NCBI GenBank assembly: GCA_016187385.1 | Contig: JACPJU010000001.1 | Location: forward strand, 401,144 to 465,143 | Source of the DNA: Candidatus Aenigmatarchaeota archaeon | Lineage (GTDB): Archaea > Aenigmatarchaeota > Aenigmatarchaeia > CG10238-14 > SCSR01 | DNA: 64,000 nt | Reading direction: 5' to 3' | Part shown: one piece after another, positions 7,727-60,982 of the stretch | Layout of the letters: every line of letters begins with the position of its first letter | Numbering within the stretch: position 1 is the stretch's first letter | The notes under the pieces: generated by a model | Database searches by the model: none | Told to the model about the DNA's origin: nothing | The model's input: only the letters and a program-made list of their open reading frames with translations | Translations under genes and position numbers: made by a program

Positions 7727-7727
7727 A

Positions 7728-7983: not shown

Positions 7984-8004
7984 ACCATCCCCAATTAATA
8001 TTAG

Positions 8005-8466: not shown

Positions 8467-8488
8467 AAAAGGGAATACAAATCATATT

Positions 8489-9151: not shown

Positions 9152-9567
9152 AAGCCCAATCTTTGATAATCCAGTTCATTATTTTCTTTACCATAAGCCT
9201 ATCTGTATTTTTCATGGTCGGCAATCTCTTCAGATACCAGTATGATTTGATCAGGCGGGATGTTCTACAGTCAAGTTCAGAATTGACAGCCGAATACTTG
9301 TCTGCTGTGGCGATAAAAGCTGTCGACACATGCAAATCCTGCGACAATGTCAGCATAACTTTGAACGTCAAGCCTTCTGCAGGATACAATCCGACCATTC
9401 GGTTGGACGATGGAATATTAGTAAAGATAGAACCAGAGAACAAGATTGTCCAATCGTCCATCCACAATCTGAAAGATTCAATCAGATTCCAAACAAACGA
9501 TGTTTCTTCGGTGCAACCTATAACTTTAACTTATGAGAGAGAAAACAATATATTGGGGATTGAATGA
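9148..9567 (+). CDS. Minor pilin-like membrane-anchored protein
   Basis: 139 residues. MKAQSLIIQFIIFFTISLSV is a class III-type start with KAQ before a hydrophobic helix of about 20 residues. A soluble region follows with one Cys pair (TCKSC, about residues 58-62). Start and stop both overlap neighbours by ATGA, so it is translated as part of the pilus operon. Role as a minor pilin or initiation subunit is inferred from the N-terminus and location. Confidence 0.75.
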   Translation: MKAQSLIIQFIIFFTISLSVFFMVGNLFRYQYDLIRRDVLQSSSELTAEYLSAVAIKAVDTCKSCDNVSITLNVKPSAGYNPTIRLDDGILVKIEPENKIVQSSIHNLKDSIRFQTNDVSSVQPITLTYERENNILGIE

Positions 9568-11300
9568 AATTTTCTCGGTCTGCTCTGCTGCGGAAAATGA
9601 TTGCAGGTCAAAAAATTCTTGCGCAAAAGTCACAGCAATTATCGCAAGGACAATTCCCGATTCAGCAAGTGCAGATAACCGCGCCACCTCAACTTCAAGC
9701 CCAACGAGAAGAATCTATAAAACCGCAGATCGCAGAAAAAGTCGAAGGATTCGAAATACCATCATGTAGACCCAAGGCCAAGATGGAAACAGAATCTCAT
9801 GAAAAGGTCATTGCGCCATTGACTTATCCGCTGATTCCAAAATCGCCCGCAAAGGACGAGCCTGTTTTTGCTTATGCCAAAATCTTCTGGGACGCCGCCA
9901 ACAACAAATACATCTACGAGCTAGTTGAACCGCAAATGTCTGAAAAACTGAAAGACACCAACATAAAAGTGAAGGAAATGCTCGAGCAGAGACTGGATGT
10001 TGACTTCAGCAAATTGAAAAAAATAGAAGTGAAGAAATATCTGAACGATAATGTTGACAAGGTGTTGAATTATTTCAATCTGATTCTGAACGACGCCGAG
10101 AAGACAATACTGAAATACTACATAGAACGGGATTTCACCGCGCTCGGAATCATGGAACCTTTGATGCAGGACCCGAACATAGAAGACATCAGTTGCGACG
10201 GGGTAAACATACCCGTGTTTGTCTTCCACAGAAATTCAAAGGTCAGTTCTGTTGCAACGAATATAAAATTCGACACCGATGAAGAATTGGATTCTTTTGT
10301 CATACGTCTTGCGCAGTTGTGCGGGAAATCGATTTCAGTCGCGCAGCCATTGCTTGACGGAAGCCTTCCGGACGGTTCGAGAGTGCAGGCTACACTGGGA
10401 ACCGACATTGCAAGAAGAGGGAGCAATTTTACGATCAGAAAATTCACAGAAGAACCATTGACGCCTACAAATATTCTGAATTACGGAACATCAGATCCAG
10501 GCATGCTCGCTTATTTGTGGTACGCTGTCGATTATGGCAGAAGCATTCTTGTATCCGGCGGAACAGCATCGGGAAAGACATCCATGCTTAATGTTCTTTC
10601 ACTTTTCATAAGACCGGACAAAAAAATTGTCAGCATAGAAGATACCGCAGAACTGAGACTTCCTCATCCACATTGGGTTCCCATGGTCGCGAGAACCAGC
10701 ATAAGTGTAGAAGGTTCGAAGGAAGTTGATTTGTTTGAGCTGCTCAAAGAAAGCTTGAGGCAGAGACCAGACAACATAATTGTCGGCGAAGTAAGGGGAA
10801 AGGAGGCTTATGTGTTGTTCCAGCAAATGGCCACAGGTCATCCGTCCCTTGCAACAATACATGCAGAAAACATAGGCAGACTCATGGACAGATTGACAAC
10901 ACAACCTATCTCATTACCGGCATCGCTTCTCAGCAGCCTTGATATTGTTGTGTTCCAGGCGAAAATGAGATACCGGGACAAATTTGTCAGGCGCGTTGTC
11001 GAAATTGTTGAGATAGTTGGTGTAGATCCAAAAACAAATTTGCCGATAATAAACCAGGTGTACAAATGGAATCCCCTCAAGGACACATTCGACATCACGA
11101 GCAAGTCTCTTGTGCTGAAGAAAATATCAGAATACAACGGCCTCACAGAAAAACAGATAAGAGACGACATACAGAAAAGAATCAAGATACTGGAATGGAT
11201 GGACGAGAACAAAATTCTGGACTATAGGATGTTCCACAAGCTGTTTTCTATTTACTACAGCGACCCCAATAGATTAATGTCTGCAGTAGGTGCAGTATAG
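9564..11300 (+). CDS. Type II/IV secretion system (pilus assembly) ATPase, GspE/TadA/VirB11 superfamily
   Basis: 578 residues. It would power pilus polymerisation at the cytoplasmic face of the membrane. Residues 1-80 are low-complexity and Gln/Pro-rich. The C-terminal ATPase has Walker A GGTASGKTS (about 332-340), the Asp box IVSIEDTAELRLPH (about 353-366) and VGEVRGKEA (about 411-419), followed by a His box TGHPSLATIHAEN. These motifs are diagnostic for this superfamily. It precedes two TadC-like membrane proteins, the normal ATPase-platform gene order. The lack of FlaF/G/H/X-like genes argues against an archaellum and for a type IV pilus or adhesion system. Confidence 0.93.
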   Translation: MKFSRSALLRKMIAGQKILAQKSQQLSQGQFPIQQVQITAPPQLQAQREESIKPQIAEKVEGFEIPSCRPKAKMETESHEKVIAPLTYPLIPKSPAKDEPVFAYAKIFWDAANNKYIYELVEPQMSEKLKDTNIKVKEMLEQRLDVDFSKLKKIEVKKYLNDNVDKVLNYFNLILNDAEKTILKYYIERDFTALGIMEPLMQDPNIEDISCDGVNIPVFVFHRNSKVSSVATNIKFDTDEELDSFVIRLAQLCGKSISVAQPLLDGSLPDGSRVQATLGTDIARRGSNFTIRKFTEEPLTPTNILNYGTSDPGMLAYLWYAVDYGRSILVSGGTASGKTSMLNVLSLFIRPDKKIVSIEDTAELRLPHPHWVPMVARTSISVEGSKEVDLFELLKESLRQRPDNIIVGEVRGKEAYVLFQQMATGHPSLATIHAENIGRLMDRLTTQPISLPASLLSSLDIVVFQAKMRYRDKFVRRVVEIVEIVGVDPKTNLPIINQVYKWNPLKDTFDITSKSLVLKKISEYNGLTEKQIRDDIQKRIKILEWMDENKILDYRMFHKLFSIYYSDPNRLMSAVGAV

Positions 11301-12169
11301 TGGATTTTTACACAAAATTCTCATTCCGTTTTTTCGGTGGACTGAGCGATGATTTAGCCGTTTTCTTCCCCGATCTGGCAGACGATTTAAAGAAGGCCGG
11401 GCTGAGCATTTCAAACAAAGAATACATAAGCCTGGGTGCGATGAGTTCTTTCTTATTTCTCCTCATGGAACTCCCAATAGTATCTTTCATTTTCGGATTC
11501 GTGTTCAAAGGAGTGCTCATAAGCCTGATAACATCCATTACAACTTCGGTGCTCCTGGCGCTATTGGTATTTTACCTGTTCACGCAATATCCGAAAACAG
11601 TTGTCCACGACAAGGAAAAAAGAATCGATTCTGTGCTTCCGTTTGCTTCATTGTTTCTTTCGACGATAGCGGGCACAAAGCTTCCTTTGGACCAGATTTT
11701 CAAAGTCTTCGGCAGATACAGCAAATACGGCGAGATAACAAACCAGATGCAGCTTTTGAATAAAGACATCGACCTTTTCGGCATGGACATTCACACTGCT
11801 CTGGAAAGGGCTGTCAACAGGTCGCCTTCAAAGAAATTGAAGGAAATGCTGTGGGGCATTCTGTCCACCTCAACCTCTGGCGGCGATGTCAGCACTTATC
11901 TGCGCGAGAAGGGTCTTGGCCAGATGGAAGATTACAAGAGAACGCTGAATGACTTTTCAAAAAAACTTACGCTCTTCATCGAAATCTATCTCACTGCGAT
12001 TGTTGTCGGTGCGATATTCTTCATCATAATGACATCGATATTCTCGGGAATTTCCGGAGTGGGAGGCAACATAATCCTATTGCAGTCCCTGATACTTTTC
12101 CTGTTTTTGCCAGTCATTTCTATAGTGTTCATGATTTTGATAAAGGTTTCATCGCCCACAGGTGATTGA
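11300..12169 (+). CDS. Pilus assembly platform membrane protein, TadC/FlaJ-like (first)
   Basis: 289 residues starting at a GTG whose first base is the last base of the ATPase TAG stop. Hydrophobic segments lie at about residues 43-93 and again at about 225-285, with a cytoplasmic helical domain between them (SVLPFASLFLSTIAGTKLP, and a TSTSGGDVSTYLREK segment). This is the GspF/TadC fold of pilus platform proteins. The conserved SGG-like element matches type II secretion F domains. It would sit in the membrane and couple ATPase motion to pilin polymerisation, probably with the second copy next door. Confidence 0.88.
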   Translation: MDFYTKFSFRFFGGLSDDLAVFFPDLADDLKKAGLSISNKEYISLGAMSSFLFLLMELPIVSFIFGFVFKGVLISLITSITTSVLLALLVFYLFTQYPKTVVHDKEKRIDSVLPFASLFLSTIAGTKLPLDQIFKVFGRYSKYGEITNQMQLLNKDIDLFGMDIHTALERAVNRSPSKKLKEMLWGILSTSTSGGDVSTYLREKGLGQMEDYKRTLNDFSKKLTLFIEIYLTAIVVGAIFFIIMTSIFSGISGVGGNIILLQSLILFLFLPVISIVFMILIKVSSPTGD

Positions 12170-13105
12170 GTGAAAAAGAAAATGAACGTAAACCAGACAT
12201 TGATGATAACGATCGGGATATCCGCAGTTCTTGTAGCCGTAGGCATAATAACAGCCGATACGGGAATCGTCGGCAACGCGATAATATTGTCCGCTTTCAT
12301 AATATCAAGCCCCATACTTTTCGTCCGCTACAAAAAATTCAGGGAGTTCAAGGAAATGGAAGAGAAATTCCCAGTGTTCCTGCGGGATTTGATTGAATCC
12401 TTGAGAGCAGGGCTTCCACTTCACAAAGCCATCCTGAGCGCGAACAAAATAAGTTACGGCAGCCTTTCGAATGAAGTCAAGAAAATGTCTAGCCAGATAA
12501 GCTGGAACATGCCTGTCGACAAAGTTCTGGGGCAATTCGCGGATAGGGTAAAGTCGAGCAAAAAGCTGAACTCAGGAGTCCAGGTCATCCGCGAGTCTTA
12601 TTTGTCAGGCGGAAATGTAGTCTCGACAATGGATTCTATCGCAACATCGCACATAGCTTTGTTGGATGCCGAGAAAGAAAGATCTTCCGCATTGGGCCAG
12701 TATGTGATCGTCATGTATGCCATATCCCTCATAGTCATTGCTATCGTAGTGGGAATAAACAAGATAATGGTTCCTATATTTTCCCTGTCGCAGCAGAGCG
12801 GTTTCGCCGAATCGGGTTTCGCCATTTCAAATCCGTGCAATGCATGCACAGGCATAGAATGCGGCGTGTGCGCAGGTTACGATCTAACAGCCCATGTATT
12901 TAAGATTGACCCGCAAAGTCCATCAGCGTATTATACATCCCTGTTTTTCTTCATGAGTATAATCCAATCGATATTCTCAGGACTGGTCGCGGGACAGATA
13001 AGCGAAGGCTCTCTTGTTGCTGGATTCAGGCATAGTCTGATTCTGGCAAGCATCACGTTCGGCACTTTCAGCATCTTGGTGAGGGTGGGTCTTCTTGGCG
13101 CATAA
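12170..13105 (+). CDS. Pilus assembly platform membrane protein, TadC/FlaJ-like (second)
   Basis: 311 residues from a GTG directly abutting the preceding stop. Two hydrophobic segments near residues 12-50 and several at about 180-205 and 255-310 flank a cytoplasmic type II secretion F-like domain (LRDLIESLRAGLPLHKAI, then SYLSGGNVVSTMDSIA). An insertion before the last helices contains four Cys (NPCNACTGIECGVCAGY, around 223-239), which may form disulfides or bind metal on the outer face. This Cys cluster is not a usual part of the family. The tandem arrangement with the first TadC-like gene suggests a heterodimeric platform. Confidence 0.87.
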   Translation: MKKKMNVNQTLMITIGISAVLVAVGIITADTGIVGNAIILSAFIISSPILFVRYKKFREFKEMEEKFPVFLRDLIESLRAGLPLHKAILSANKISYGSLSNEVKKMSSQISWNMPVDKVLGQFADRVKSSKKLNSGVQVIRESYLSGGNVVSTMDSIATSHIALLDAEKERSSALGQYVIVMYAISLIVIAIVVGINKIMVPIFSLSQQSGFAESGFAISNPCNACTGIECGVCAGYDLTAHVFKIDPQSPSAYYTSLFFFMSIIQSIFSGLVAGQISEGSLVAGFRHSLILASITFGTFSILVRVGLLGA

Positions 13106-13598
13106 AAAGGCCCAGCTTTCCGCAGGCTTTTACACTGCCATGATAGTCTTCATAGGTTTTGTCGGTTACATAACATTCCAACTATTCCAGACAGTTCCAA
13201 CAACAATCAACGCAGTAAGATCAGAAAACATGAGAATCGAGGCATATCAGATTTCAGAATTGCTGGTGAACGATGTTGGTGAACCGAATGATTGGGAGAC
13301 CAAACAATTGTCTCAAATAGAAAGGATAGGATTGTCAGACGCGACTCAAAATAAAACCAATTATTTATCTACTGGGAAAATAAACCAATTGCAGACCATA
13401 TGCAACAATAATTACAATGATTTGAAGCGATTGCTCGACATCGATAATGAGATATCAATAGAATTCATCGACCACGCGACAGACACAGGATGGGTGTGCA
13501 ACCCAAATACGCAGCAGAACAGTTTCAGATTCAATCGAATAGTGTCGGTTGACGGAACTTCTTCCGCAGAACTAATAATTGAGATGTGGAGACAATGA
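13095..13598 (+). CDS. Pilin-like protein with class III signal peptide
   Basis: 167 residues from a TTG that overlaps the preceding gene by 11 bp. The N-terminus MAHKKAQLSAGFYTAMIVFI has a basic head, a KKAQ processing-like site and a hydrophobic helix. The following region is polar with two Cys. The stop overlaps the next ATG (ATGA). It is probably a minor pilin. The TTG start is chosen because it is the only start that keeps the basic head and the processing motif. Confidence 0.72.
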   Translation: MAHKKAQLSAGFYTAMIVFIGFVGYITFQLFQTVPTTINAVRSENMRIEAYQISELLVNDVGEPNDWETKQLSQIERIGLSDATQNKTNYLSTGKINQLQTICNNNYNDLKRLLDIDNEISIEFIDHATDTGWVCNPNTQQNSFRFNRIVSVDGTSSAELIIEMWRQ

Positions 13599-14953
13599 AA
13601 GGACAGGTTCCTATTGTGGAAGTAATAATCTCAATCATAATCGCATTTGTAGCGTTCAATATCCTGTTCACCGGCGGACAATACCAGACAAAATGGAATG
13701 ACGCTACATCGTTATTGCACGGCAGGGACATTCTGACAACCGCTGACAGGTTGGGTCAATTGCACAATTATGCTTTCTCCGAAACCAGTTTCAATTCATT
13801 CATCGGGGAGATGGACGTATCCAAAGATGTTCTCATAAAACTGGAAACACAGGGAACTTTAAAAAGTACAATGTATATTGCGTGCGATTGCACAAGTGAA
13901 CAACTAGCATATCTTCAAAATGTTCTTGGCGACGTGAAGCTCAACAACAGGCAAGTTAATGTTAATATCTGCAGTACAACATTGCCGGCTATAAACAGTT
14001 GCGGTTCGGGTACGCAATATCCCGATGTTCTTGTCATATGGGGCTATAGGGATCTTACATCATACATAAGCGTTCTTTCGGATTTCATCAGCAACGGCAA
14101 CAGTGCTGTGGAGATAGCCGATGTGCCGCATACTAAAGTCAACAATCTCGGAAATGACGAGGACGAGGGACAGAAAAGAATCTTCGGGACGATTTACATA
14201 GCCGAAGGCAATTTTCCAAACAATCAGGATGAATTCATAGCTCCAACAAATGCCCAGCAACTGACTTTCAAATCCTACAGATGGTTCTATCATCTGCCTT
14301 ATCTTCTGACAGGAACGAGTGATGCTGTTTCATTTCAAATGGAGTCTGGATCTACTGTAACATGCAATGGCAAGACAGGCAATTTAAAATTCAGGGACAA
14401 CAGTTACCAATTCTGGATTTGCAGCGACAGCAAAGCCTACTTTGACACGACCACACCTCAAAACAACAAAGCTGACGTATCAGTCTCAGAAGGGGAAAGA
14501 TTTTCAATATCATCATCGAACTTTCTGTTGAGTTACGTTGAATTACCAAACAAGATAAGAATAACATTCAAGCCTGATTACCAATACAATGATTTCATAG
14601 TCAAGGACAACGGACACAACAAGCTGGCGTTGGCATCGCCGGACAACAAGAGCAAGACATTGCTTTCAATGGGCTTCTGGGATAATGAAGAACAAAAGCC
14701 GATTGCAGCCGTGATATTCAACGGCACGGAAAACGGAAAGTCTGTATGGATAGCGGATTTTTCACGAGATGGTTTGAGTGCAACAGGCGATGACCACAAA
14801 CAATTGTTATCCTCACTAATTTTGTCAATCGCAAGCAAGAAAAGCACAGTGCAGTCAATTTTATCCGGTCAGATTACTTCCTACATAAATGTTGTGAGCA
14901 AAGACATGATGGAAGTATATAGGGTCGACCTTGCGATTGGAAAACCGTTCTAG
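13595..14953 (+). CDS. Large pilin-like surface protein of the pilus operon
   Basis: 452 residues from the ATG at 13595, which overlaps the upstream TGA; a GTG at 13586 is less likely. MKGQVPIVEVIISIIIAFVA is a class III signal with KG before Gln, then a hydrophobic helix. The long extracellular part has scattered Cys (CDC, NSC, TCNGKTG, WICSD) and beta-rich stretches. VLVIWGYRDL and SVWIADFSRDGLS hint at an alpha/beta module resembling a von Willebrand or glutamine-amidotransferase-like fold, but I cannot assign it. It may be the tip or adhesive pilin of the system. It is the last gene of the overlapping operon. Confidence 0.75.
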   Translation: MKGQVPIVEVIISIIIAFVAFNILFTGGQYQTKWNDATSLLHGRDILTTADRLGQLHNYAFSETSFNSFIGEMDVSKDVLIKLETQGTLKSTMYIACDCTSEQLAYLQNVLGDVKLNNRQVNVNICSTTLPAINSCGSGTQYPDVLVIWGYRDLTSYISVLSDFISNGNSAVEIADVPHTKVNNLGNDEDEGQKRIFGTIYIAEGNFPNNQDEFIAPTNAQQLTFKSYRWFYHLPYLLTGTSDAVSFQMESGSTVTCNGKTGNLKFRDNSYQFWICSDSKAYFDTTTPQNNKADVSVSEGERFSISSSNFLLSYVELPNKIRITFKPDYQYNDFIVKDNGHNKLALASPDNKSKTLLSMGFWDNEEQKPIAAVIFNGTENGKSVWIADFSRDGLSATGDDHKQLLSSLILSIASKKSTVQSILSGQITSYINVVSKDMMEVYRVDLAIGKPF

Positions 14954-14974
14954 AATTAATCTGATTTTAGCCAG

Positions 14975-15187
14975 CTACGGAGGTATAGGCGGAATTTCTT
15001 CTGGTGCATTTTGAATGGGTGCGGTAATTTGTATAATATCATTTAATGGCGATTCTCTGTTTAAAACTAGAAACCATACAACTGCCAGCAAGATAATAAC
15101 GACAACACCAATTAAAATATACATCCGTGTTCTGCTCTTTTTCTTTTCTTTATCACCCCATTTCTCCTTCAATTCGTTGTATTCCAT
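14975..15187 (-). CDS. Small single-span membrane protein
   Basis: 70 residues. A charged N-terminal head (ELKEKWGDKEKKKSRTR) precedes one hydrophobic helix (YILIGVVVIILLAVVWFLV, about 23-41), and the C-terminus is acidic and proline-rich (APEEIPPIPP). The positive-inside rule places the N-terminus in the cytoplasm. It is divergent from the giant surface protein, with only 28 bp between the starts, so the two share a promoter region rich in TATATA. It may be a small partner of the pilus or surface protein; the role is unknown. Confidence 0.7.
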   Translation of the reverse strand: MEYNELKEKWGDKEKKKSRTRMYILIGVVVIILLAVVWFLVLNRESPLNDIIQITAPIQNAPEEIPPIPP

Positions 15188-15215
15188 ATATATATCATTC
15201 GCGAAATAATAATAT

Positions 15216-18200
15216 ATGAGTTACTGGCGGTACTTCGTAATATTCTTTTTACTCGGAATTGTCTTGAACATAACTACGGTCCATGCATCAATTTTCGACA
15301 ACTTCTTCTTCGGTAGCATAATTGATCTCCTCAAACTCACAGGATATGCTGTCGCGCCCACAGACACAGTCTCATACTACAAATTCGACGAATCATCTGG
15401 TACAACAGCTTCAGATTCATCCGGCGCCAACACAGGAACTTTAATCGGCGGTCCATCCTGGACAGCAGGCAGAGTCAACAATGCATTGAACTTCGACGGA
15501 ATAAATGATCATGTATCAATCCCGGATTCTTCTGCATTGGACATCGCCACCAGCATGACAATCACAGCTTGGATAAAAGCATCCGATTGTTCCGGCAGAA
15601 AGGAAATAGTGCAGAAAAATAGCGCTTACGGCCTGAAGCTGGAGAACTGCAAGCTGGTAGGATACTTCTGGGGCTCGTCTGAACCTGCAAGCGCATCCAC
15701 ACTCCAAGCCAACACATGGTATCACATAGCCTACACATATGACGGCACATCAAGAAAATACTACATTAATGGTCAGCTGGACAGCTCCCACTCAACCACA
15801 GGCTCTATCCCAGCAAGCAATCTCAATCTCTGGATTGCACGCGGCTGGTCTGGCGCATACTTCAACGGCATCATAGACGAGGTGAAGATATACAACCGTG
15901 CATTATCTGCAACAGAAATCACAGACGAATACAACTCAGCACCAACACTTCCAGATTATGATGCCCAGTTCATCTCCCAGTCAGTTCCTTCCTCACTCTG
16001 CACCAGCCAGAAATCAACAGTCAACATAACAATGAAGAACACAGGCAACAATACATGGACATCATCAGACAACATTAGATTAGGATCGCAAAATCCTCAA
16101 GACAATACAGTCTGGGGTACACATCGAGTCTTCCTGAACAATACCGATTCGATAAAAACAAACGAGCAGAAGACATTCACGTTCGAGATGACATCCCCAT
16201 CCACAGCAGGCACTTACAACTCCCAGTGGAAGATGCTCAAGGAATTGGTGAAATGGTTCGGTGAGAATTCTACCAACGTGGCAATAGCTGTTCAACAGTG
16301 CCCATCACAACAACCAGACCTAATCATTACAGATATAATATTCACTCCCCTTTCTCCTACAGCAACAGACACAGTGACAATAAACATAACAGTGAAGAAC
16401 ACAGGCATTGCTACAACATCAGCATCTAATTTATCAGTAACTGGCGCAGGAACTTCTTGGAGCCTAACAACCAACATCCTGCCATCAGATTCTAATCAGA
16501 CTCTCCAGATAACTACTAGCTTATCTTCAGGCACACACACTTTCACAGCCAGAGCAGATGCTGACAACGTTATAACAGAATCAAACGAAACAAACAATGA
16601 GCTGACAAAGACTCTAACAGTGTCACCGTCAACTACCCAGACAGGCAACCTGTCCACCGCTTCAACTCCAACAAACGCAAACGTCTATGTCAACAACACA
16701 TACCGTGGCACAACACCAATAAACATCTCATTATCTGCAGGCATTTATGCGGTAAATCTGACAAAATCCGGCTATCTTAATTATACAACCACAGTAACCA
16801 TAGCAGCAGGAGAAACAAGAAATTTAATAGCGGCATTAACACCAAGTGGAACAGCAGAACCTCTAACTGATACTTCTCCTCCTGTCAGATCCAACGGCTC
16901 GCCAACAGGCATGATAACTGTCAATACTTCCACCTTGTCTCTAACTACCAATGAGCTGTCTATATGCAGATACTCTACTGCAGCTGGCGCATCCTACAAT
17001 TCAATGACATCACCTACAGCTCTGAACACAACCCATTCATGGCAATTGTCAAATCTCCCTGATGGAGAAAAGAATTACTACATCCGCTGCAATGACACAG
17101 CAGGCAATGCGAATACTGATGATTACAGGATAACATTCACAGTGAATACAAGTACACAACTTACAGTTGCACCAGCCTTGTCATCAACAGATTTACTAGA
17201 CATCGCCCTACAGCTTGAGACATTAAAAACAAAATTCAGCCAATTGAAAGATTCTACATTGGCATTGGTTGATTACTATGATTCTACAGGCGACACACAA
17301 AACAAAAACAAATTCACAGAAATCGTCGGAATGCTTGGAACAGTCATAAATGAGGTGACTGACATATCGCAGAAAATCAACAGGAATGTAGACAATCCTG
17401 ATGCTATTAAAGACGAACTAAAAGATGACGTCCAAGATTTGAAAGAATTTAACAAAGAGATTGTAAGAAGGATAACCACTTCCCCGTCGGTGGCATCAGC
17501 TGAAACAAGTCCGCCTTTAGCGAATGTGGAAACATCTCAACAAAAACCCGATTTGATAGTCGAGGACATTTCCTTCGTGCAAACGAGAACTATAGGAAAT
17601 TGGAGACAAGTTAATGTTACTTTGAAAATTAAAAACATTGGAAACACAGATTTCCAGACTATCTTTCTGAATAGCTTTTACATAGAATATACTCCTATTG
17701 GGCATTCTGGTTCAGAATATGGGTCTAGAAAAGTGCTTGTCAATCACAATGGGGAGTCTATTCCTGTTAGCGGTGTTATGGAAGTGCAATTAGGTACTAT
17801 ATGGTTGGAGTCTTCTATAGAGAGAGTGAGATTCCTAATCAATTCAGGATATCCTAACGTACCTCGTGGGGAAGAGTCCAACTATGAAAATAATGCTTAT
17901 GTATTAGAAACTCAATTCAATCCAAACGAATTTATTCTGGGAATCATCTCTGATCCCCCAACTGCAAAAATCTACATCAACAATACTTACAAAGGCACAA
18001 CGCCTTCAAATATCGTGCAGTCTTTCAGGCCGTACTCGATTGAAGTCACAAAAATGGGTTATGAGAATTACACTGAAAGTTTTCAAGAAGCTACAGACGT
18101 CTCAATAAGACTAATTTCTAAGTATGAAGAATATTGTCCATATGGGTTTGTGGCAGGTTGCCAAACACCAAATGTTTTAAAATTATTTGGACAAAAGAGC

Positions 18201-21200
18201 ATCAAAGAGACTAGTACACTTAAAACAACAGCAAATGGAATATTTCATGCCTCTGGTGTAGTAGTGGACAAAAACAGTACACCAAATAAAGTTTATGTTT
18301 TCGACACAGGCAACAACAGGATACTAGGATTTAATGGTATTGGTTATTGTACCAACGACCGCAGTAAATCATGCACAATCGATTCTGATTGTGGTTCTAG
18401 TTCTTGCTATATTAATGGCACTAAACCTGCTGATATGGTAATCGGCCAGTCAGACTTTGAAAGTGGAGCTTGTAACCGAGACAACAATTTTGGAATAAAT
18501 AAAGCTCCAGCTGCAGATACACTCTGTCTAATAGGATACCCGTACATAACAAATCTTGGGGAGTATTGGATGAGGGCCAATTTTGATGTCGATGGACAAG
18601 GCAACCTATATTTAGTAGATGTTTGGAATAACAGAGTTCTAAAATACAACCAACCATTCAGTAGCGACAAATCTAATGGTAAAGGCGATGCAATTGCAGA
18701 TTATGTTTGGGGACAGGATGATTTCAATTCCAATGGAATAAATCGAGGTACGTCAGGATATTATAATTATGCCAGTACCCCCAGACCCGATGATAGTTCG
18801 TTATGGACAAGCTTTGGATTCAGAACTTCAGATCATGTGTCGGCCAGAGGAGTTTCTTTTGATTCGAAAGGAAATCTTTGGGTTGCTGATACATTCAATC
18901 ATAGAATTTTGCGATTCCAACCAAATTCCAAGCAGGCTGATTTGGTATTGGGTCAACCTGACTTTACTTCGAATATAAACGGTTGCCATCTTGGACAGTA
19001 TGGTAATGAGACTATAATAGCCCCTCTTGATAGAATGTGTACACCCACATTAGCAAGATTTGATCCAGGATCGGGTGAATTATATGTTCTTGATGAACAT
19101 AGTCGTGGCTTTAGAGCTCGGATACTCGTCTTTAAACCACCATTCACTAATGGTATGTCAGCTTACAAAGTAATAGCTCCTGAGTATGAGAATGCACCAG
19201 GTTACAATAGACAATTCATAAATTCTGAAGGACAATTTGTTTTTTCAGCAACCGGTTTTATTTTTAACACGTATAAACAAGGGGATTACGCAACGGGTAG
19301 GTTATGGGTAAACTTATATGGGACAGCACGCACTGTCCTTATAGACGATAATGGAAACATAACCAAAGTCATTGGCACGCCAGGAAAGTATTATGTAGGA
19401 GGAGAGCGTGTTTCTCCTAGTGCATGTAGCAGTAACTCACCTTTTGCGAGTAGTAATGTATGGACACCAGATGGCGGAACTCTTGATTTGTGGACACCTG
19501 GCGGTTCAATCGGTATCGACAGTGCTAACAATATCTACCTTGCTGATGAGACGCCTCATAGAATTATGAGATACGCACTTCCTTATGAGCCGTATAAAAT
19601 AAATGATATAACCTGTCTGCCTTCACCAAATGGTGGTCTCTTCCCGGCAACTAGACCTCCAGGTCCGCATATGAATGTTCCAAGCAACGAGTCTTTTGGC
19701 TCAGGCGTTGGTCTAGCAGTTTTTGAAAACCAGCTTATTATACAAGATGCCGGTTTCAAGGTATTCAACGACTATCTTAATAAACCTATCGGTGCATCAC
19801 CTGATATCATTGTTTCTTCGGCAAGCACTTCGCGCGAGTTAATCAGCGATGCAATAGACGACTCGAATAGATTATGGGCTTTTGATGTACAAGGTAAAAT
19901 ACGTGTTTATCAACTACCTTTTCAAGTTGGAAGCGAAAATCGTCCACTAGTAGATTCTGTCAGATTGTATTGGGAAGATACAGGAAATGAAATAAATTAT
20001 CATCTTCTTGATAATGCCATAGCGTTCGATAAAATTAATAAGAAGATTTATGTGGTCGACGGCCCCCACCATAGAATTCTGCGTGTAAGCAACTACAATG
20101 ACCTCTTCGATAACAACCCGAATAATAACAAGCTCTTTGTCGACATGGTGATCGGTCAGCCTGATAAAGAACACGTCGGATGTAATTACGATCAGTTGGG
20201 TGCACATTTTGCATCGGATGTAAGGGTTCCACCAACCGCCAGTAGCTTATGTAAACCTCACCAAGTAAAATTTGACAAACTGGGAAATCTGTATGTGGTC
20301 GAGAACAATTACGAATGTCAAGGCAATGATCGCATTACAGTATTTATGGCAGATGATCTGAAAAATGCTCAAGGTCTATTCCCGAATCTGCAAGCTAAGA
20401 AAGCATTTGTAGGAGGACTTACTTCAATTGGTCCTTGTGCCCCTGGCACAATAGGCGGACCAGGCTCGCCTGTAAGCATTGCTTTTAACAGTAAAAATCA
20501 GATGGTGGTAGGCAACGACGGATACTACGGCGACTCTCAAACAAGACACGTAAGACAGCTTTGGTTCTATGCCGATCCTTTAAACAGACAAATACCTGAT
20601 GATTATATTCCTCTACCGTTAGGTGCAGCAGGTGAAATTGCTTTTGATTCGCAAGATAATTTAATTGTCCAAGATCACACATGGAGCAAGGTTTGGATTA
20701 TAAACTTGGAGAAGGATCCTCTATGGTTAAAAAACAATGTCACAATTTTCATAGATAGTGACGCGCGGTTCACAAGTTCAAGATATGTTACACCGACGTT
20801 ATCCTGCTCAGGTATAACAGACTGCTCAGAGGTACAATTTTCCAATGACGGTATTACATATTCAACACCCGAAGCATATGCTACAACAAAATCATGGACA
20901 TTGTCATCTGGGGACGGCACAAAGACAGTATATGCAAAATTCAAAGATAGTGCGGGGAATCTGATGTCTGTGCCTGTTGTTGATACAATAACTCTAGATA
21001 CGATACCGCCAGAAAGGAGCAATGCTCAGCCAACAGGAACAATAGCCTCGCTCCCTCCACTTGCGGTAACAACAAATGAGAATGCAACATGCAGGTATTC
21101 AACAACCGCAGGAACTGCTTACAATTCAATGACATCAGATACAACATCCTCAGGTACATTCCATTCATGGTCTTTATCACGCCTTACAGACGATGTGTAT

Positions 21201-22814
21201 AATTACTATGTGAAATGCAGGGATAGAGCAGGTAATGTTAACACAGATGATTATGTTATAACATTTACTCTAGCAACTGCCCAAGCAGGTAGTTTACGTA
21301 TAAGTATAGTTTCTGCTGGAGGTGATACTATGGGTGCAGACATTTATGTAGACAATGTCTGGAAAGGATTTGGCACTGGACAGACTACGACACTTCCAGC
21401 AGGACAGTATAAAGTCAAGATTACCAAAGAAAGCTATGTGGACTACATCGAAACTGTCAATGTTGTTGCTGGACAAACCACTACTGTCAGAGCAGTACTT
21501 GTGCCTGGAATCGATCAAACCATAACATTAGCTCAAGGCTGGAAGCTTATCGGCCTTAATGTATCCAAGCCTTCCAGTTATACAGCAGAAGATTTCCTCA
21601 GAGAACTTGATTCTTCATTCACAGCTAGCCAACAATGCACATCTCAAAACAAAGTCGCACAAATTGTCAGATGGGACAGTTCCCGTGGAAGATACGTAAC
21701 TCATTATATAGGCTCAGACGCAAACAACTTCCCCATAGCTTTAGGCGAAGGATACTTTATCAAAGGCAACTGTGCAGGAACAGCCACAATTACAGGAGAA
21801 CCTAACTCTCTATCTTCCATAACAATCTCAAGAGAACGGTCTATGATATCACTACCAACAGTACCTTCCAGTATATCCACAGCTGAAGATTTGCTGCAAT
21901 CCATGCAATCGCAGGGAATCGATGTAAGAGAAATTACTCAATGGTTCGGTGGAAGCTACAGAGTTCATTATATAGACTCGGATGCGAACAATTTTCCCAT
22001 ACAATCAGGCGAAGGATACTTCATCCGCAATTATGGCGATGCAAAGACATTCTTGATTCCTACTCCAGTCAGAAGCAATGGCCAACCAACAGGAACAATA
22101 ACCACAACTTCTCCTACGTTCTCTCTAACAACAGACGAATCTACTACATGTAGATATTCGACAACATCAGGTGCGTCTTACAATTCCATGACTCAAATGT
22201 CGACAACTGGAGGCACATCACATTCTCAGTCATTATCAGAATTGTCAAATGACGTGCATAATTATTATATAAAGTGCAGGGACTCTTCTGGCAATACAAA
22301 TACGGATGACTATACAATATCATTCACTGTCGACATCCATAAAAGGGTTTTCATCACGAGCATCGCGTACAACGGTAATATGGGTGGCTTGGATGGTGGC
22401 GACCAGAAATGCCAGTCACTAGCCGGCACAGCTAATCTTGGCGGTGAATGGAAAGCTTGGCTAAGTAACGGTACAATTTCAGCATCTTCTCGCCTTACTC
22501 ACAGTAATGATAATTACAAGCTCTTAACTGGAACGAAAGTTGCTGATGATTGGAGTGATTTGACTGACGGTAGTCTGGATGCAGCCATAAATGTTGACCA
22601 GAGTGGGAACACGCAAGCGAATAAAAACGTTTGGACAGCTACCGGTTATAATGGTGAAAGAGGCACCAGCGGTATCCAATGTGAAAACTGGAGTAATGGT
22701 GCTGGGACTGTGTTAGGTTTGGTTGGTAATAGCGACAATACTAATTTAGATTGGACACAAAAAACAGCGAGATCATGCTCTCAGACTTCTCATTTATACT
22801 GTTTCGAACAATAA
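15216..22814 (+). CDS. Giant secreted modular surface protein (LamG, CARDB, PEGA, NHL, FN3-like, DUF1554)
   Basis: 2532 residues. A signal peptide covers about 1-25. Modules in order: LamG-like lectin fold (51-242); NBR1-type Ig-like domain (248-365); CARDB (367-472); PEGA (475-545, VYVNNTYRGTTP); FN3-like (553-645); helical region (650-760); second CARDB (775-905); second PEGA (908-968); long NHL-type beta-propeller region (about 985-1835, LWVADTFNHRILRF); two FN3-like units (1840-2022); third PEGA (2026-2100); a tandem pair with SDANNFPI and GEGYFI (2100-2280); FN3-like (2285-2372); C-terminal DUF1554 (2373-2532), a C-type-lectin-like fold domain. It lies just after the pilus operon. Adhesion or host/cell contact is inferred. 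The DUF1554 domain is shared with the protein at 59414. Confidence 0.9.
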   Translation: MSYWRYFVIFFLLGIVLNITTVHASIFDNFFFGSIIDLLKLTGYAVAPTDTVSYYKFDESSGTTASDSSGANTGTLIGGPSWTAGRVNNALNFDGINDHVSIPDSSALDIATSMTITAWIKASDCSGRKEIVQKNSAYGLKLENCKLVGYFWGSSEPASASTLQANTWYHIAYTYDGTSRKYYINGQLDSSHSTTGSIPASNLNLWIARGWSGAYFNGIIDEVKIYNRALSATEITDEYNSAPTLPDYDAQFISQSVPSSLCTSQKSTVNITMKNTGNNTWTSSDNIRLGSQNPQDNTVWGTHRVFLNNTDSIKTNEQKTFTFEMTSPSTAGTYNSQWKMLKELVKWFGENSTNVAIAVQQCPSQQPDLIITDIIFTPLSPTATDTVTINITVKNTGIATTSASNLSVTGAGTSWSLTTNILPSDSNQTLQITTSLSSGTHTFTARADADNVITESNETNNELTKTLTVSPSTTQTGNLSTASTPTNANVYVNNTYRGTTPINISLSAGIYAVNLTKSGYLNYTTTVTIAAGETRNLIAALTPSGTAEPLTDTSPPVRSNGSPTGMITVNTSTLSLTTNELSICRYSTAAGASYNSMTSPTALNTTHSWQLSNLPDGEKNYYIRCNDTAGNANTDDYRITFTVNTSTQLTVAPALSSTDLLDIALQLETLKTKFSQLKDSTLALVDYYDSTGDTQNKNKFTEIVGMLGTVINEVTDISQKINRNVDNPDAIKDELKDDVQDLKEFNKEIVRRITTSPSVASAETSPPLANVETSQQKPDLIVEDISFVQTRTIGNWRQVNVTLKIKNIGNTDFQTIFLNSFYIEYTPIGHSGSEYGSRKVLVNHNGESIPVSGVMEVQLGTIWLESSIERVRFLINSGYPNVPRGEESNYENNAYVLETQFNPNEFILGIISDPPTAKIYINNTYKGTTPSNIVQSFRPYSIEVTKMGYENYTESFQEATDVSIRLISKYEEYCPYGFVAGCQTPNVLKLFGQKSIKETSTLKTTANGIFHASGVVVDKNSTPNKVYVFDTGNNRILGFNGIGYCTNDRSKSCTIDSDCGSSSCYINGTKPADMVIGQSDFESGACNRDNNFGINKAPAADTLCLIGYPYITNLGEYWMRANFDVDGQGNLYLVDVWNNRVLKYNQPFSSDKSNGKGDAIADYVWGQDDFNSNGINRGTSGYYNYASTPRPDDSSLWTSFGFRTSDHVSARGVSFDSKGNLWVADTFNHRILRFQPNSKQADLVLGQPDFTSNINGCHLGQYGNETIIAPLDRMCTPTLARFDPGSGELYVLDEHSRGFRARILVFKPPFTNGMSAYKVIAPEYENAPGYNRQFINSEGQFVFSATGFIFNTYKQGDYATGRLWVNLYGTARTVLIDDNGNITKVIGTPGKYYVGGERVSPSACSSNSPFASSNVWTPDGGTLDLWTPGGSIGIDSANNIYLADETPHRIMRYALPYEPYKINDITCLPSPNGGLFPATRPPGPHMNVPSNESFGSGVGLAVFENQLIIQDAGFKVFNDYLNKPIGASPDIIVSSASTSRELISDAIDDSNRLWAFDVQGKIRVYQLPFQVGSENRPLVDSVRLYWEDTGNEINYHLLDNAIAFDKINKKIYVVDGPHHRILRVSNYNDLFDNNPNNNKLFVDMVIGQPDKEHVGCNYDQLGAHFASDVRVPPTASSLCKPHQVKFDKLGNLYVVENNYECQGNDRITVFMADDLKNAQGLFPNLQAKKAFVGGLTSIGPCAPGTIGGPGSPVSIAFNSKNQMVVGNDGYYGDSQTRHVRQLWFYADPLNRQIPDDYIPLPLGAAGEIAFDSQDNLIVQDHTWSKVWIINLEKDPLWLKNNVTIFIDSDARFTSSRYVTPTLSCSGITDCSEVQFSNDGITYSTPEAYATTKSWTLSSGDGTKTVYAKFKDSAGNLMSVPVVDTITLDTIPPERSNAQPTGTIASLPPLAVTTNENATCRYSTTAGTAYNSMTSDTTSSGTFHSWSLSRLTDDVYNYYVKCRDRAGNVNTDDYVITFTLATAQAGSLRISIVSAGGDTMGADIYVDNVWKGFGTGQTTTLPAGQYKVKITKESYVDYIETVNVVAGQTTTVRAVLVPGIDQTITLAQGWKLIGLNVSKPSSYTAEDFLRELDSSFTASQQCTSQNKVAQIVRWDSSRGRYVTHYIGSDANNFPIALGEGYFIKGNCAGTATITGEPNSLSSITISRERSMISLPTVPSSISTAEDLLQSMQSQGIDVREITQWFGGSYRVHYIDSDANNFPIQSGEGYFIRNYGDAKTFLIPTPVRSNGQPTGTITTTSPTFSLTTDESTTCRYSTTSGASYNSMTQMSTTGGTSHSQSLSELSNDVHNYYIKCRDSSGNTNTDDYTISFTVDIHKRVFITSIAYNGNMGGLDGGDQKCQSLAGTANLGGEWKAWLSNGTISASSRLTHSNDNYKLLTGTKVADDWSDLTDGSLDAAINVDQSGNTQANKNVWTATGYNGERGTSGIQCENWSNGAGTVLGLVGNSDNTNLDWTQKTARSCSQTSHLYCFEQ

Positions 22815-22847
22815 TATGATTTTATGTACAAATACGAATCTAATCAT

Positions 22848-22946
22848 ATGAAAATGAAAGCCCTGACTGAAATACAATTCACATTTGTCGCAGCTCTGAT
22901 AATGATCCTGATAATAGTAGGCATATTGATGTACATCTCAAAATAA
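22848..22946 (+). CDS. Tiny single-helix membrane peptide (32 residues)
   Basis: A short frame MKMKALTEIQFTFVAALIMI continues as a hydrophobic helix and ends YISK. It has a basic head, a TEIQF pattern resembling the start of pilin-type helices, and one membrane span. The stop TAA is directly followed by the GTG start of the next gene, which supports translation as a coupled pair. Function unknown. Its pilin-like N-terminus and position after the giant surface gene suggest a membrane component of the surface apparatus. Confidence 0.55.
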   Translation: MKMKALTEIQFTFVAALIMILIIVGILMYISK

Positions 22947-23213
22947 GTGAAAAACATGTCTCCACACAGAATATCATCCGTATCCAAAGGTGCATCAGAA
23001 TTCGCAACATGGGGAATAGCTATGTTGCTATTGCTGGCTGTAGTTTTGTTTCTGTTCAATACGATTGTTTTGAAAGGACAGCTTCCATTCGGCAAATCCA
23101 ATGAAGCTAAAGTAACCTCACCAACAGAAGCATCGCAGAAAACTTCTGAAATAGGCAAAGACCTGCAGGATGTCAGTTCTGCTATAGAAAACATCGAGAG
23201 AAGATTGGGATGA
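22947..23213 (+). CDS. Small membrane protein with one helix and a coiled tail
   Basis: 88 residues starting at a GTG directly after the stop of the 32-residue peptide. SEFATWGIAMLLLLAVVLFL forms one membrane span at about residues 18-41, preceded by a basic, Ser-rich head. The C-terminal tail (SQKTSEIGKDLQDVSSAIEN) is helical with heptad spacing. It resembles small accessory proteins next to pilus systems but belongs to no family I can name. A start at the internal ATG 22956 is also possible. Confidence 0.65.
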   Translation: MKNMSPHRISSVSKGASEFATWGIAMLLLLAVVLFLFNTIVLKGQLPFGKSNEAKVTSPTEASQKTSEIGKDLQDVSSAIENIERRLG

Positions 23214-23234
23214 TATTAGAAAACCATGAAGAAT

Positions 23235-24062: not shown

Positions 24063-24136
24063 ACAAACAATAGAAAATGATAACTTTATTAATTCTTGCT
24101 ATTGTCGATTTTCTAAATCAGACAAAAACACGATAT

Positions 24137-26005
24137 TTATTTCAATCTCAACGATTCAAGATTCCTCGGAGCGTCAGCCTCCACCCTGAAAATCCTGTTC
24201 ATCGCTCTTGCAAGTTCCTGAGTTTTAATGGACTCTCCGTGCACGCAGACAACTTTGTCTGGTTTCGATGACAGTCTGCCGACAAATCCCAATAATTGAT
24301 TGCGATCACTATGACCGCTCAAACCCTCTATGGTTTCAATCTGCATCTTCAATTCCAGCGACGACATCCTACCGCCCTCGCCCTTGAAAGGAACTTCCTT
24401 CCAACCTTTCTGAATCCTTCTTCCCATTGTTCCTTCTCCCTGATAACCAACAAAAAGCAGTGTACTGTTCGGATCTTCGGCGAGATGCTGCAAATGACTT
24501 AACGCAGGTCCGCCCATCAACATTCCGCTCGTTGAAACTATTACACAAGGCTTGTCTTCCCACGCCTTTTCCCTTTCTGACTGAGACGCTATTCTTTTGA
24601 ACATGGGATTGAGAAACGGATTCTTTCCCTGGAATATCTCCTTCTGTATGTTCCTTCCGAGATATTCAGGATAGGCAGTGAATATACCATTCGCATCCAG
24701 TATCATCCCATCAAGATAAACAGTGTGTTCAAAATTGTTTTCTGCAAGTATGGCCATGACTTCCTGCGCCCTTTCAACAGCAAAGCTCGGAATCAATACA
24801 ATACCATTCCTTTCCATGGTTTTGTTGACAACATCAACCAATTGCTTCTCTGTAAAGGCCCTGTTAGGCTGAATATCATTAGGTCCGCCATAAGTGGATT
24901 CAATCACTAAAGTCTCCACCCTTTGGAAATCGGTGAATGCCGGATCAAGCAGTGTTGTCCTGCCAAATTTTTGATCGAGAGCATAAACGATGTTGTGCAT
25001 TCCTTCTCCGACATGAAGATGAACCAAAGAACTTCCCAGTATATGGCCCGCATTCTGAAATGTTATCCTGACATCTGGCGCGACATCAGACACCTCGCCA
25101 TAATCCAAAGTGATTGCATGTTTGACAGCTTCCTTTATCCCGCGCACAGTAAACAAAGGAGATGTCGTGCTTTTTTGCATCACATCAACATAATCAAACC
25201 ATAGCAGGGTTGCGAGATCAAGCGTAGGCGTTGTTATGTACAATGGACCGTCAAAGCCATATTCATACAGCATGGGCACAGCACCTATGTGATCCAAGTG
25301 CGAATGCGAAACAACGATAGCGTCCAATTCATTGTAATCGAATTCCTTTGTGCCGAAAATCGGTATTGCCTCCGCATTCACGGCGCCAGCCTTCACGCCG
25401 CAGTCGATCAAAACTTTTGATTTCATCGTCTCAAGCAGGACAGAACTCCTTCCGACTTCCCTCCATCCGCCGAGACCGATCATCCTTATCCAATCGCGGT
25501 TGGATTTTCTCTCGCTGAAAATCAATTCCCCGACCTTGTTCAGGAATTCTTTTCTGAACTTCACTTCAGCATGTATGACTTTTCTAATGCTGTCCACGAT
25601 GTCCGACTTTATAGCAGGAACCCTTTCTATCTTTGGTATCCAGAATGTTTCAGATCGGATAGAGCGGAAAGTCTCCCCGCCTTTGCCGATAACAAGCCCC
25701 GGCTTCTCCGCAGCTATTACAACAATGCTCCGCTCGGGTTCGAAATAAACATCCTTTACTTTCGCATCTTCAGGCACGAGTTCCTTTATCTTCTCCTTTG
25801 TAAAGTCCTGATCCATCACAATATTTTTCTCGGGCCTGACTTCTATCCTCTTCTTTATCTTGCCAACAACCTCCCTGATCGTCTCTTCATGGTCTTTGAA
25901 AAATGCGCGGTCCTTGGTGTAAACAATCAGTTCCGAGCCTTCCAATTCAATCCTGCTTATGACATCCTCTGGCAAGAGAGATTTTACTTTATCCAGAATT
26001 TCCAT
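24137..26005 (-). CDS. aCPSF1, KH-domain beta-CASP ribonuclease
   Basis: 622 residues, near the usual 630-640. aCPSF1 is the archaeal relative of eukaryotic CPSF73; it cleaves RNA 3' ends, has 5'-3' exonuclease activity and acts in transcription termination. Two KH-type RNA-binding domains occupy about residues 1-150 (GLVIGKGGETFRSI is the KH loop). The metallo-beta-lactamase motif HSHLDH is at about 235-240, with GLGGWREVGRSS before it. The beta-CASP block (FAVERAQEVM, STSGMLMGGPA) and C-terminal GLSGHSDRNQL follow. Identity is firm. It is followed at 3' by the metallopeptidase gene and preceded by the proteasome gene on the same strand. Confidence 0.96.
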   Translation of the reverse strand: MEILDKVKSLLPEDVISRIELEGSELIVYTKDRAFFKDHEETIREVVGKIKKRIEVRPEKNIVMDQDFTKEKIKELVPEDAKVKDVYFEPERSIVVIAAEKPGLVIGKGGETFRSIRSETFWIPKIERVPAIKSDIVDSIRKVIHAEVKFRKEFLNKVGELIFSERKSNRDWIRMIGLGGWREVGRSSVLLETMKSKVLIDCGVKAGAVNAEAIPIFGTKEFDYNELDAIVVSHSHLDHIGAVPMLYEYGFDGPLYITTPTLDLATLLWFDYVDVMQKSTTSPLFTVRGIKEAVKHAITLDYGEVSDVAPDVRITFQNAGHILGSSLVHLHVGEGMHNIVYALDQKFGRTTLLDPAFTDFQRVETLVIESTYGGPNDIQPNRAFTEKQLVDVVNKTMERNGIVLIPSFAVERAQEVMAILAENNFEHTVYLDGMILDANGIFTAYPEYLGRNIQKEIFQGKNPFLNPMFKRIASQSEREKAWEDKPCVIVSTSGMLMGGPALSHLQHLAEDPNSTLLFVGYQGEGTMGRRIQKGWKEVPFKGEGGRMSSLELKMQIETIEGLSGHSDRNQLLGFVGRLSSKPDKVVCVHGESIKTQELARAMNRIFRVEADAPRNLESLRLK

Positions 26006-59413: not shown

Positions 59414-60982
59414 ATGGCTAACAAAGGAAGTCAGCGGGAATTCAGGCCTTGGATAACACTAGCCGCTTTAATTGCTGTAACGTTAAGCGTTTCCATTTAT
59501 TTCTTTTTCCTTGGTGGCCAATTAATACCACCCGAACAACCACCGAATGTAACCCAACCACCTCAACCACCAGGACAGCCTCCAACACAACCACCAGGAG
59601 GTCAACCATCTCAACCACCGCCAGTCGGAGGAGCACCGCCTGAAGAACCACCAAAAAAGATACCAAGTCCGATTGAACTCTTATCAAGAATCATTTCCAT
59701 GGGTTCGATACTCAAGACAGGCATGGTTGTAGGCACGCAGGGCCAGAGCATTCTGTTCCAAGATTCTGCAGGCAAAAATTTAATGATTATTGATAATTCA
59801 GGCAATGTTACAATAGATCAAAACAATCTAGCACCTACATTATTTGTAGACGCAGACAAAAACAGAACAGGTATAGGCACTTCAAATCCTCGGGCAAGGT
59901 TAGAGATTGTAAACAAGCTGGCAAGTGAGCGTATTGGTGGTACTGAATATCCTATCTATGACTTAAGATTAACAGCAACCTCCTCAGATCATCCATCAGT
60001 AATTGAATTTAATGACATTAATGATCCTTTCCCCCCCGGATTTATCGAGTATTATCACTCTCTGGATATGATGCGATTTTTTGTAGATAGTGATTATGCA
60101 ATGGTTTTAGCGAATTCTACTTTTGGAAGATCATCTGTTGTTATAGGAGCAGTAAGGATTCCTGAAGCTAATTTGCAAGTATATGGTAACATTAGCATAG
60201 TAAATGCTATGGGAGGAGATAGCTTTGTGGTTAATGACCAATCCTATGAATCTGGGGACCAATTAGTACATGATCCTACACCATTTGTTATTGACAAGGA
60301 TGGCAATGTTGGCATAGGTATAGGTACTCCTAAATCAAAACTGCAAGTGACGGGAAACTATATCCAAATACCTACGAGGAGCAACTTACCTGTAGGCACA
60401 GATTGTGATGTAGCTGATGAAGAGGGACGAGTGGTTTTTGATACAACAAATGATAACCTCTATATTTGTTCGGGTGTGTCTGGATGGCGCGAAGTTGTAA
60501 CTACAACGTATAAAAGAGTTTTCATCACAAGTACTGGCTACAATGGCACTCTCGGAGGTCTAAGTGGTGCCGACCAGAAATGTCAATCATTAGCTAATGC
60601 AGCTAATCTAGGCGGAACTTGGAAGGCTTGGCTAAGCGATCGGACAACTGCCGCAACTTCACGATTGACTCATTTCAACAATCCTTACAAATTATTAGAC
60701 GGCAAGAAAATAGCAGATAGTTGGAATGATTTAACAGACGGCTCTATAGCAAATGCTATAAATTTGGACGAAAAGACAGCAACTCAAACAAACAAGTTAG
60801 TTTGGACAAGTACAAGTTTCAATGGTTCTATTCCATATTCTCCAACTAATCGTTGTGAAGACTGGACACTAAACTCAGCTTTTGGTGATGTAGGTAGTAA
60901 TTCCCGTACTGATTCGGGTTGGACAAATCAGGGGATGCACGAATGTACTAACATCAATCATTTGTACTGCTTTGAACAATAA
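59414..60982 (+). CDS. Surface protein with proline-rich stalk, fibre-like repeats and C-terminal DUF1554 domain
   Basis: 522 residues. A basic head and one membrane span (WITLAALIAVTLSVSIYFFF, about 13-32) form a signal anchor, then a Pro/Gln stalk (about 38-85). Residues 110-350 contain tail-fibre-like units (LFVDADKNRTGIGTSNPRAR, VIDKDGNVGIGIGTPKSKLQ), a pattern known from phage fibre and S74-type proteins, with no chaperone domain seen. Residues about 370-522 are a DUF1554 domain (KRVFITSTGYNGTLGGLSGA, GGTWKAWLSD, HLYCFEQ), nearly the same as the end of the giant protein at 15216. GGAGG at about 59386-59390 lies too far from the ATG to be a clear SD. Adhesion role inferred. Confidence 0.85.
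   Translation: MANKGSQREFRPWITLAALIAVTLSVSIYFFFLGGQLIPPEQPPNVTQPPQPPGQPPTQPPGGQPSQPPPVGGAPPEEPPKKIPSPIELLSRIISMGSILKTGMVVGTQGQSILFQDSAGKNLMIIDNSGNVTIDQNNLAPTLFVDADKNRTGIGTSNPRARLEIVNKLASERIGGTEYPIYDLRLTATSSDHPSVIEFNDINDPFPPGFIEYYHSLDMMRFFVDSDYAMVLANSTFGRSSVVIGAVRIPEANLQVYGNISIVNAMGGDSFVVNDQSYESGDQLVHDPTPFVIDKDGNVGIGIGTPKSKLQVTGNYIQIPTRSNLPVGTDCDVADEEGRVVFDTTNDNLYICSGVSGWREVVTTTYKRVFITSTGYNGTLGGLSGADQKCQSLANAANLGGTWKAWLSDRTTAATSRLTHFNNPYKLLDGKKIADSWNDLTDGSIANAINLDEKTATQTNKLVWTSTSFNGSIPYSPTNRCEDWTLNSAFGDVGSNSRTDSGWTNQGMHECTNINHLYCFEQ

What the first reader, a model, noticed from the sequence alone, without database searches (positions are those of the whole stretch)
15216..22814. 2532-residue surface protein combining lectin, PEGA, CARDB, NHL and DUF1554 modules
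A very large share of a compact genome is spent on one secreted protein, placed directly after a type IV pilus operon. The FN3-like module with CRYST and NTDDY motifs occurs three times, PEGA three times, CARDB twice. The combination suggests an adhesin or contact protein, for example for a host-dependent lifestyle.
Basis: partly seen in the sequence, partly recalled or inferred. Interest (0 to 1): 0.65.

Follow-up and report, generated by a model that had tools for sequence, protein, structure and literature searches.

The report
Mosaic archaeal surface protein, endostatin-like tip
This is a real, very large secreted protein of a tiny-genome archaeon, assembled from sugar-binding, spacer, propeller and endostatin-like modules that also occur in other genes, and inserted between two conserved genes; it is probably an attachment protein of a kind already known in these archaea, with an unusual tip.

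Summary
Window 15216-22814 is one unbroken 2532-aa ORF with a Sec-type signal peptide, LamG, NBR1-type Ig, two CARDB, three PEGA, three Big_13 modules, a large NHL propeller and a C-terminal DUF1554 domain. Three results go beyond it. (1) The gene is not part of the pilus operon: a 70-aa minus-strand ORF separates them, and in six relatives the pilus operon is followed, after 2 to ~1300 bp, by the fttA-like gene. The giant is a lineage-specific insert. (2) The propeller (aa 987-1839) is a self-contained module. The same genome has a second copy (67-70% identical) behind an N-terminal membrane anchor; a third (60%) follows a signal peptide in another Aenigmatarchaeota genome. Only 2 of 156 genomes of the phylum have it. 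(3) DUF1554 is an endostatin-fold domain (model pLDDT 91.5; TM 0.82 to endostatin; profile E 7e-12; all four endostatin cysteines kept), like the Leptospira Len proteins that bind host matrix. Best reading: a mosaic adhesin holding lectin, propeller and endostatin-like heads on Ig/PEGA spacers. Host attachment is inferred, not shown. Similar LamG and propeller-CARDB surface proteins are already reported in DPANN archaea: a new member of a known kind.

The parts
15216..22814 (+). 2532-aa mosaic secreted protein
   Evidence: single ORF; Pfam modules
15216..15287 (+). predicted Sec-type signal peptide (aa 1-24), the only TM-like stretch
   Evidence: hydropathy scan; cleavage site inferred by eye (VHA|S)
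15188..15196 (+). TATA-like ATATATATC 20-28 nt before the start codon (candidate own promoter)
   Evidence: sequence; inference only
15369..15941 (+). LamG / concanavalin A-like lectin domain (aa 52-242)
   Evidence: PF13385 E=1e-28
15987..16307 (+). NBR1-type Ig-like domain (aa ~258-364)
   Evidence: PF16158 32 bits, cut-off 28
16311..16619 (+). CARDB 1 (aa 366-468)
   Evidence: PF07705
16644..16844 (+). PEGA 1 (aa 477-543)
   Evidence: PF08308
16869..17159 (+). Big_13 (CRYST..NTDDY) copy 1 (aa 552-648)
17178..17474 (+). helical/coil-like segment (aa 655-753), weakly shared with surface proteins of other Aenigmatarchaeota
17538..17918 (+). CARDB 2 (aa ~775-901)
   Evidence: second PF07705 stretch; boundaries by eye
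17922..18119 (+). PEGA 2 (aa ~903-968)
18174..20732 (+). NHL-type beta-propeller module (aa 987-1839), shared as an exact block with an anchored paralogue in the same genome and a protein of another genome
20997..21278 (+). Big_13 copy 2 (aa 1928-2021)
21279..21491 (+). PEGA 3 (aa 2022-2092)
21495..22046 (+). tandem pair of '..GEGYFI' domains (aa 2094-2277), no Pfam name; relative in the pilin-like protein L016:4296-5426
22062..22334 (+). Big_13 copy 3 (aa 2283-2373)
22338..22811 (+). DUF1554 = endostatin-fold C-terminal domain (aa 2375-2532)
14975..15187 (-). 70-aa single-TM ORF between the pilus operon and the giant gene, opposite strand
9564..14953 (+). conserved pilus-type operon (T2SSE ATPase, two T2SSF, two pilin-like genes): left border of the variable site
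24137..26005 (-). fttA-like beta-CASP/KH gene: conserved right border of the variable site
59414..60982 (+). 522-aa N-terminally anchored protein carrying the genome's other endostatin-fold domain (56% identical)

Best explanation
A secreted mosaic adhesin of an Aenigmatarchaeota (DPANN) archaeon. Sec export places the chain outside the cell; CARDB, PEGA, NBR1-type and Big_13 modules form a disulphide-stiffened stalk that holds three possible binding heads: an N-terminal LamG lectin (glycans), a central NHL propeller and a C-terminal endostatin-fold domain, which together attach the cell to another cell or to extracellular polymers. The gene arose by fusing modules that also exist in other genes of the genome and of the phylum, and it was gained at a variable site between the pilus operon and fttA. 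Shown: the ORF, the modules, the propeller and endostatin homologies, the insert status and module reuse. Inferred: cell-surface retention, binding and partner.
For: Signal peptide and no other TM. Only extracellular or adhesive module families at significant E-values. Cys pairs in each Big_13 copy and the endostatin four-Cys pattern. The C-terminal domain models as endostatin (pLDDT 91.5, TM 0.82; profile E 7e-12) and resembles LenA/LenB, whose members bind laminin, fibronectin and factor H (PMC2063517). Propeller found behind different anchors: N-terminal TM in the paralogue, signal peptide in G080, internal in the giant. Relatives carry the modules in other combinations and none has an orthologue over the full length. 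Comparable DPANN surface proteins are read as contact proteins (PMC5498576, PMC6642349, PMC10266531).
Against: No C-terminal anchor and no LPEF-type tail, so the protein could be released rather than kept on the cell. No binding data. LamG, NHL and PEGA also occur in enzymes, S-layer-like and biofilm proteins. Single representative of this architecture; expression not known.
Confidence: 0.6

Rival explanations
1. Structural cell-envelope or matrix protein (S-layer-associated or biofilm scaffold) with no specific partner.
For: Stalk-type repeats dominate; Ser/Thr/Asn-rich with 32 N-glycosylation sequons; no C-terminal anchor; many such proteins per genome.
Against: Present at this site in only one of the genomes examined, while a structural envelope protein should be conserved; three different putative binding heads; 60% conservation of the propeller across families of the class.
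Confidence: 0.22
2. Accessory of the neighbouring type IV pilus, for example a pilus-tip adhesin co-expressed with the operon.
For: Next to a complete T2SSE/T2SSF/pilin-like operon; LamG genes linked to pilus loci are reported in Mia14 (PMC5498576); pilin-like LamG proteins exist in the genus.
Against: An opposite-strand ORF separates them; the operon occurs without it in all relatives examined; no pilin-type N terminus.
Confidence: 0.08
3. Secreted enzyme or sensor in which the NHL/SGL-like propeller is catalytic (lactonase- or lyase-like) and the other modules target it to polymer.
For: Weak SGL/gluconolactonase similarity; strong conservation of the whole propeller in three contexts.
Against: SGL score is below the Pfam cut-off; no catalytic residues identified; NHL propellers usually bind.
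Confidence: 0.1

Closest known systems
DPANN surface proteins of Mia14 (ARMAN-2-related): propeller repeats fused to CARDB, LamG expansion, some in genomic islands by pilus loci (PMC5498576)
   Same: Same ingredients (propeller, CARDB, LamG, secreted, strain-specific, pilus neighbourhood, island-like gain)
   Different: Kelch/YVTN rather than this NHL propeller; no PEGA, NBR1-type or endostatin-like modules described in the passages read; different phylum
Giant SPEARE proteins of Nanohaloarchaeota (PMC6642349, PMC10266531)
   Same: Very large secreted DPANN protein with LamG and other adhesion modules
   Different: 2532 aa, whereas most SPEARE proteins have 3300-9400; no C-terminal TM and no cytoplasmic VirB4/TraG-like ATPase domain
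Leptospira Len endostatin-like adhesins (DUF1554; PMC2063517)
   Same: C-terminal domain is homologous, same fold and cysteines; more than one copy per genome
   Different: LenA/B equivalog cut-off (300 bits) not reached (22-37 bits); here it is the tip of a mosaic protein in an archaeon; ligands unknown
NHL-repeat propellers (PF01436; PDB Pizza6, TRIM71, Thin; twin propellers of LRP6)
   Same: NHL blade motif; Foldseek matches; multi-blade tandem propeller
   Different: About 850 residues with six clear and perhaps six degenerate blades; no close relative outside Aenigmatarchaeota found here

Membership tests
NHL beta-propeller | NHL repeat profile above cut-off | tested here: met
   PF01436 48 bits vs 20; six clear blades recovered also in the G080 protein, best of 200 shuffles 3.6 bits
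NHL beta-propeller | closed propeller fold | tested here: inconclusive
   AF2 mean pLDDT 51, C-terminal half mostly 70-85; Foldseek to Pizza6 TMt ~0.7
Endostatin / DUF1554 (Len-type) | sequence profile match | tested here: met
   DUF1554 32.5 bits vs 27.5; profile vs 1koe E=7e-12
Endostatin / DUF1554 (Len-type) | endostatin fold | tested here: met
   pLDDT 91.5; TM 0.82/0.77 to 1koe; only endostatins below E=0.001. Predicted model, not solved.
Endostatin / DUF1554 (Len-type) | four cysteines at endostatin positions | tested here: met
   C2399, C2489, C2521, C2529 align with the four endostatin cysteines; the disulphides themselves are not shown
Leptospira LenA/LenB family | curated NCBIfam equivalog cut-off | tested here: not met
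   22-37 bits vs 300; distant relative, not a Len protein
Leptospira LenA/LenB family | binding to laminin, fibronectin or factor H | not testable with these tools
   needs protein
SPEARE giant proteins | C-terminal TM and cytoplasmic ATPase domain | tested here: not met
   only the N-terminal hydrophobic stretch; no ATPase family in Pfam
type IV pilus component | pilin-type N terminus or conserved operon membership | tested here: not met
   Sec-type N terminus; operon occurs without it in six relatives
Diversity-generating retroelement target (lectin-fold C terminus) | reverse transcriptase in the genome | tested here: not met
   no RVT_1 in the 91%-complete assembly
Archaeosortase-sorted surface protein | C-terminal sorting tail | tested here: not met
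   protein ends in the endostatin-like domain, although the genome has an exosortase homologue

The most novel reading that the evidence does not exclude
The ~850-residue propeller and the endostatin-fold domain are exchangeable recognition cassettes that Aenigmatarchaeota pass between surface proteins and between genomes, plugged into variable sites next to conserved genes to change the contact partner; the endostatin fold would then be a recognition module used by archaea as well as by animals and Leptospira.
Probability: 0.25. Interest if true: 0.6.

Novelty: new member of a known kind. Interest (0 to 1): 0.38.

Why it matters
How DPANN archaea choose and hold partners is largely unknown. 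This protein offers two compact, testable heads (an endostatin-fold domain predicted with high confidence and a rare conserved propeller) and shows how such proteins are made: fusion of existing modules and insertion at a variable site. It also corrects the tempting inference that the protein belongs to the pilus.

Tried and rejected
Pilus accessory: rejected as a conserved association. DGR-diversified lectin tip: no reverse transcriptase, and the two endostatin-like copies are only 61% identical in DNA. Phage or plasmid origin of the propeller: no match in phages or viral contigs; plasmid hits are remote NHL proteins. Wider spread of the propeller: two genome-contig scans gave only the Aenigmatarchaeota copy; these scans find close relatives only. 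Mobile-element signature: no direct repeats inside either flank stretch examined (14850-15300 and 22700-24250; not compared with each other). Conserved core orthologue of aa 366-970: none; only scattered module matches. Tree of endostatin-like domains: the pair in this genome is closest by identity (56%), but the grouping lacks support. The full propeller model is too poor (pLDDT 51) to count blades with certainty.

Full report
Observation. The ORF at 15216..22814 is real and unbroken. The only TM-like stretch is the N-terminal signal peptide; the chain has 34 Cys and 32 N-glycosylation sequons. The assembly is 876 kb, 91% complete. It lies in the same phylum and class as JACPRW01, titled Candidatus Aenigmatarchaeota archaeon, whose contig matches handle G080 in length and content, so the organism is an aenigmatarchaeon (DPANN).

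Locus. The upstream operon is a genuine pilus-type operon (T2SSE ATPase, two T2SSF); its last gene has a match in all 28 genomes searched. In four congeners and two other members of the family the order is pilus operon then, convergent, the fttA-like beta-CASP/KH gene; in G003 the two borders lie on different contigs, with the last pilus gene cut. The gap is 2 bp in G001 and G013, 158 bp in G015, 368 bp in G004, about 1.3 kb in G002 and about 1 kb in G003, the last with a Schlafen/AlbA_2 ORF. In the window the same site holds a 70-aa minus-strand ORF, the giant, an 88-aa ORF and a 275-aa minus-strand ORF without a Pfam match. The giant is therefore an insert in a variable site, not an operon member. 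A TATA-like ATATATATC lies 20-28 nt before its ATG, consistent with its own promoter (inference).

Propeller. Residues 987-1839 match a 1056-aa protein of the same genome (L015:2861-6031, minus) over exactly that block, 67% identical by BLASTP and 68% in DNA; that protein is an N-terminal membrane anchor plus the propeller. Among 156 genomes of the phylum only one other has it (G080, 60% identical), as signal peptide + propeller + Ig-like repeats, in a different family. Congeners lack it. Two genome-contig scans, viral contigs and phages gave nothing else. The paralogue also sits in a variable site: in G001 its flanking genes are adjacent, and in G003 a different 383-aa protein with a membrane-anchor-like N terminus is there. 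Six NHL blades are clear and up to six more degenerate; the model (mean pLDDT 51, better in the C-terminal half) matches Pizza6, LRP6 and teneurin propellers. Two six-bladed propellers in tandem is the likely but unproven reading.

Endostatin-like tip. Ten aenigmatarchaeal genomes of 156 carry DUF1554. A ten-sequence profile finds collagen XVIII and XV endostatins in the PDB (best E 7e-12), all four cysteines aligning. The AF2 model (pLDDT 91.5) matches only endostatins below E=0.001 (TM 0.82). NCBIfam links it distantly to LenA/LenB, whose Leptospira members bind laminin, fibronectin and factor H (PMC2063517). A second copy, 56% identical, tips a 522-aa protein 38 kb away in the window. I found no paper describing archaeal DUF1554 in the library; the library is incomplete.

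Mechanism. Most likely an adhesin: binding heads (LamG, propeller, endostatin-like) held out by CARDB/PEGA/Ig stalk modules. Sequence shows export and the modules; retention on the cell and the ligand are inferred. With no C-terminal anchor and no LPEF-type tail, retention would depend on an uncleaved signal anchor, envelope binding or self-assembly; release is possible.

Known context. LamG expansion, propeller-CARDB fusions and pilus-linked islands are described for the DPANN archaeon Mia14 (PMC5498576) and giant LamG-bearing proteins for Nanohaloarchaeota (PMC6642349, PMC10266531). The finding is a new member of this kind. The endostatin-like tip, the exact block reuse of the propeller and the insert status are what it adds.

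Noticed in passing
L018:5550-11066, L018:11087-11566, L019:11451-11936, L019:11962-15264, L016:5451-9389; G000:C2:~112121-112678 (L070:1121-1678): Large surface proteins of this genus end in a shared 'LPEFG(L/F)xGFxQI + TM + basic' tail, and the genome has an exosortase/archaeosortase homologue (PF09721): a candidate sorting system in Aenigmatarchaeota. The giant lacks the tail.
   Followed up: partly
L019:240-1235, L019:5423-6583, L011, L016:4296-5426: LamG or GEGYFI modules sit on short proteins with archaeal-pilin-like N termini (MKAIS.IGTVLLIAFT), that is, lectin-bearing pilin-like proteins.
   Followed up: no
window 59414-60982: 522-aa N-terminally anchored protein: proline-rich linker, tail-fibre-like repeats (weak PHROG tail fibre match) and an endostatin-fold domain.
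   Followed up: partly
L015:6196-6810: Free-standing LAGLIDADG homing-endonuclease-like ORF directly beside the propeller paralogue; LAGLIDADG-like ORFs by eye also lie about 8 kb upstream of the G080 copy.
   Followed up: no
L016:79-1188: MCM-like helicase fragment whose first ~50 residues look like the C-terminal end of an intein (..VGGVICHN|T).
   Followed up: no
window 14954-24136 and the same site in G002, G003: The site between the pilus operon and fttA holds different genes in different congeners (Schlafen/AlbA_2 ORF in G003, small ORFs in G002): an insertion-prone site.
   Followed up: partly
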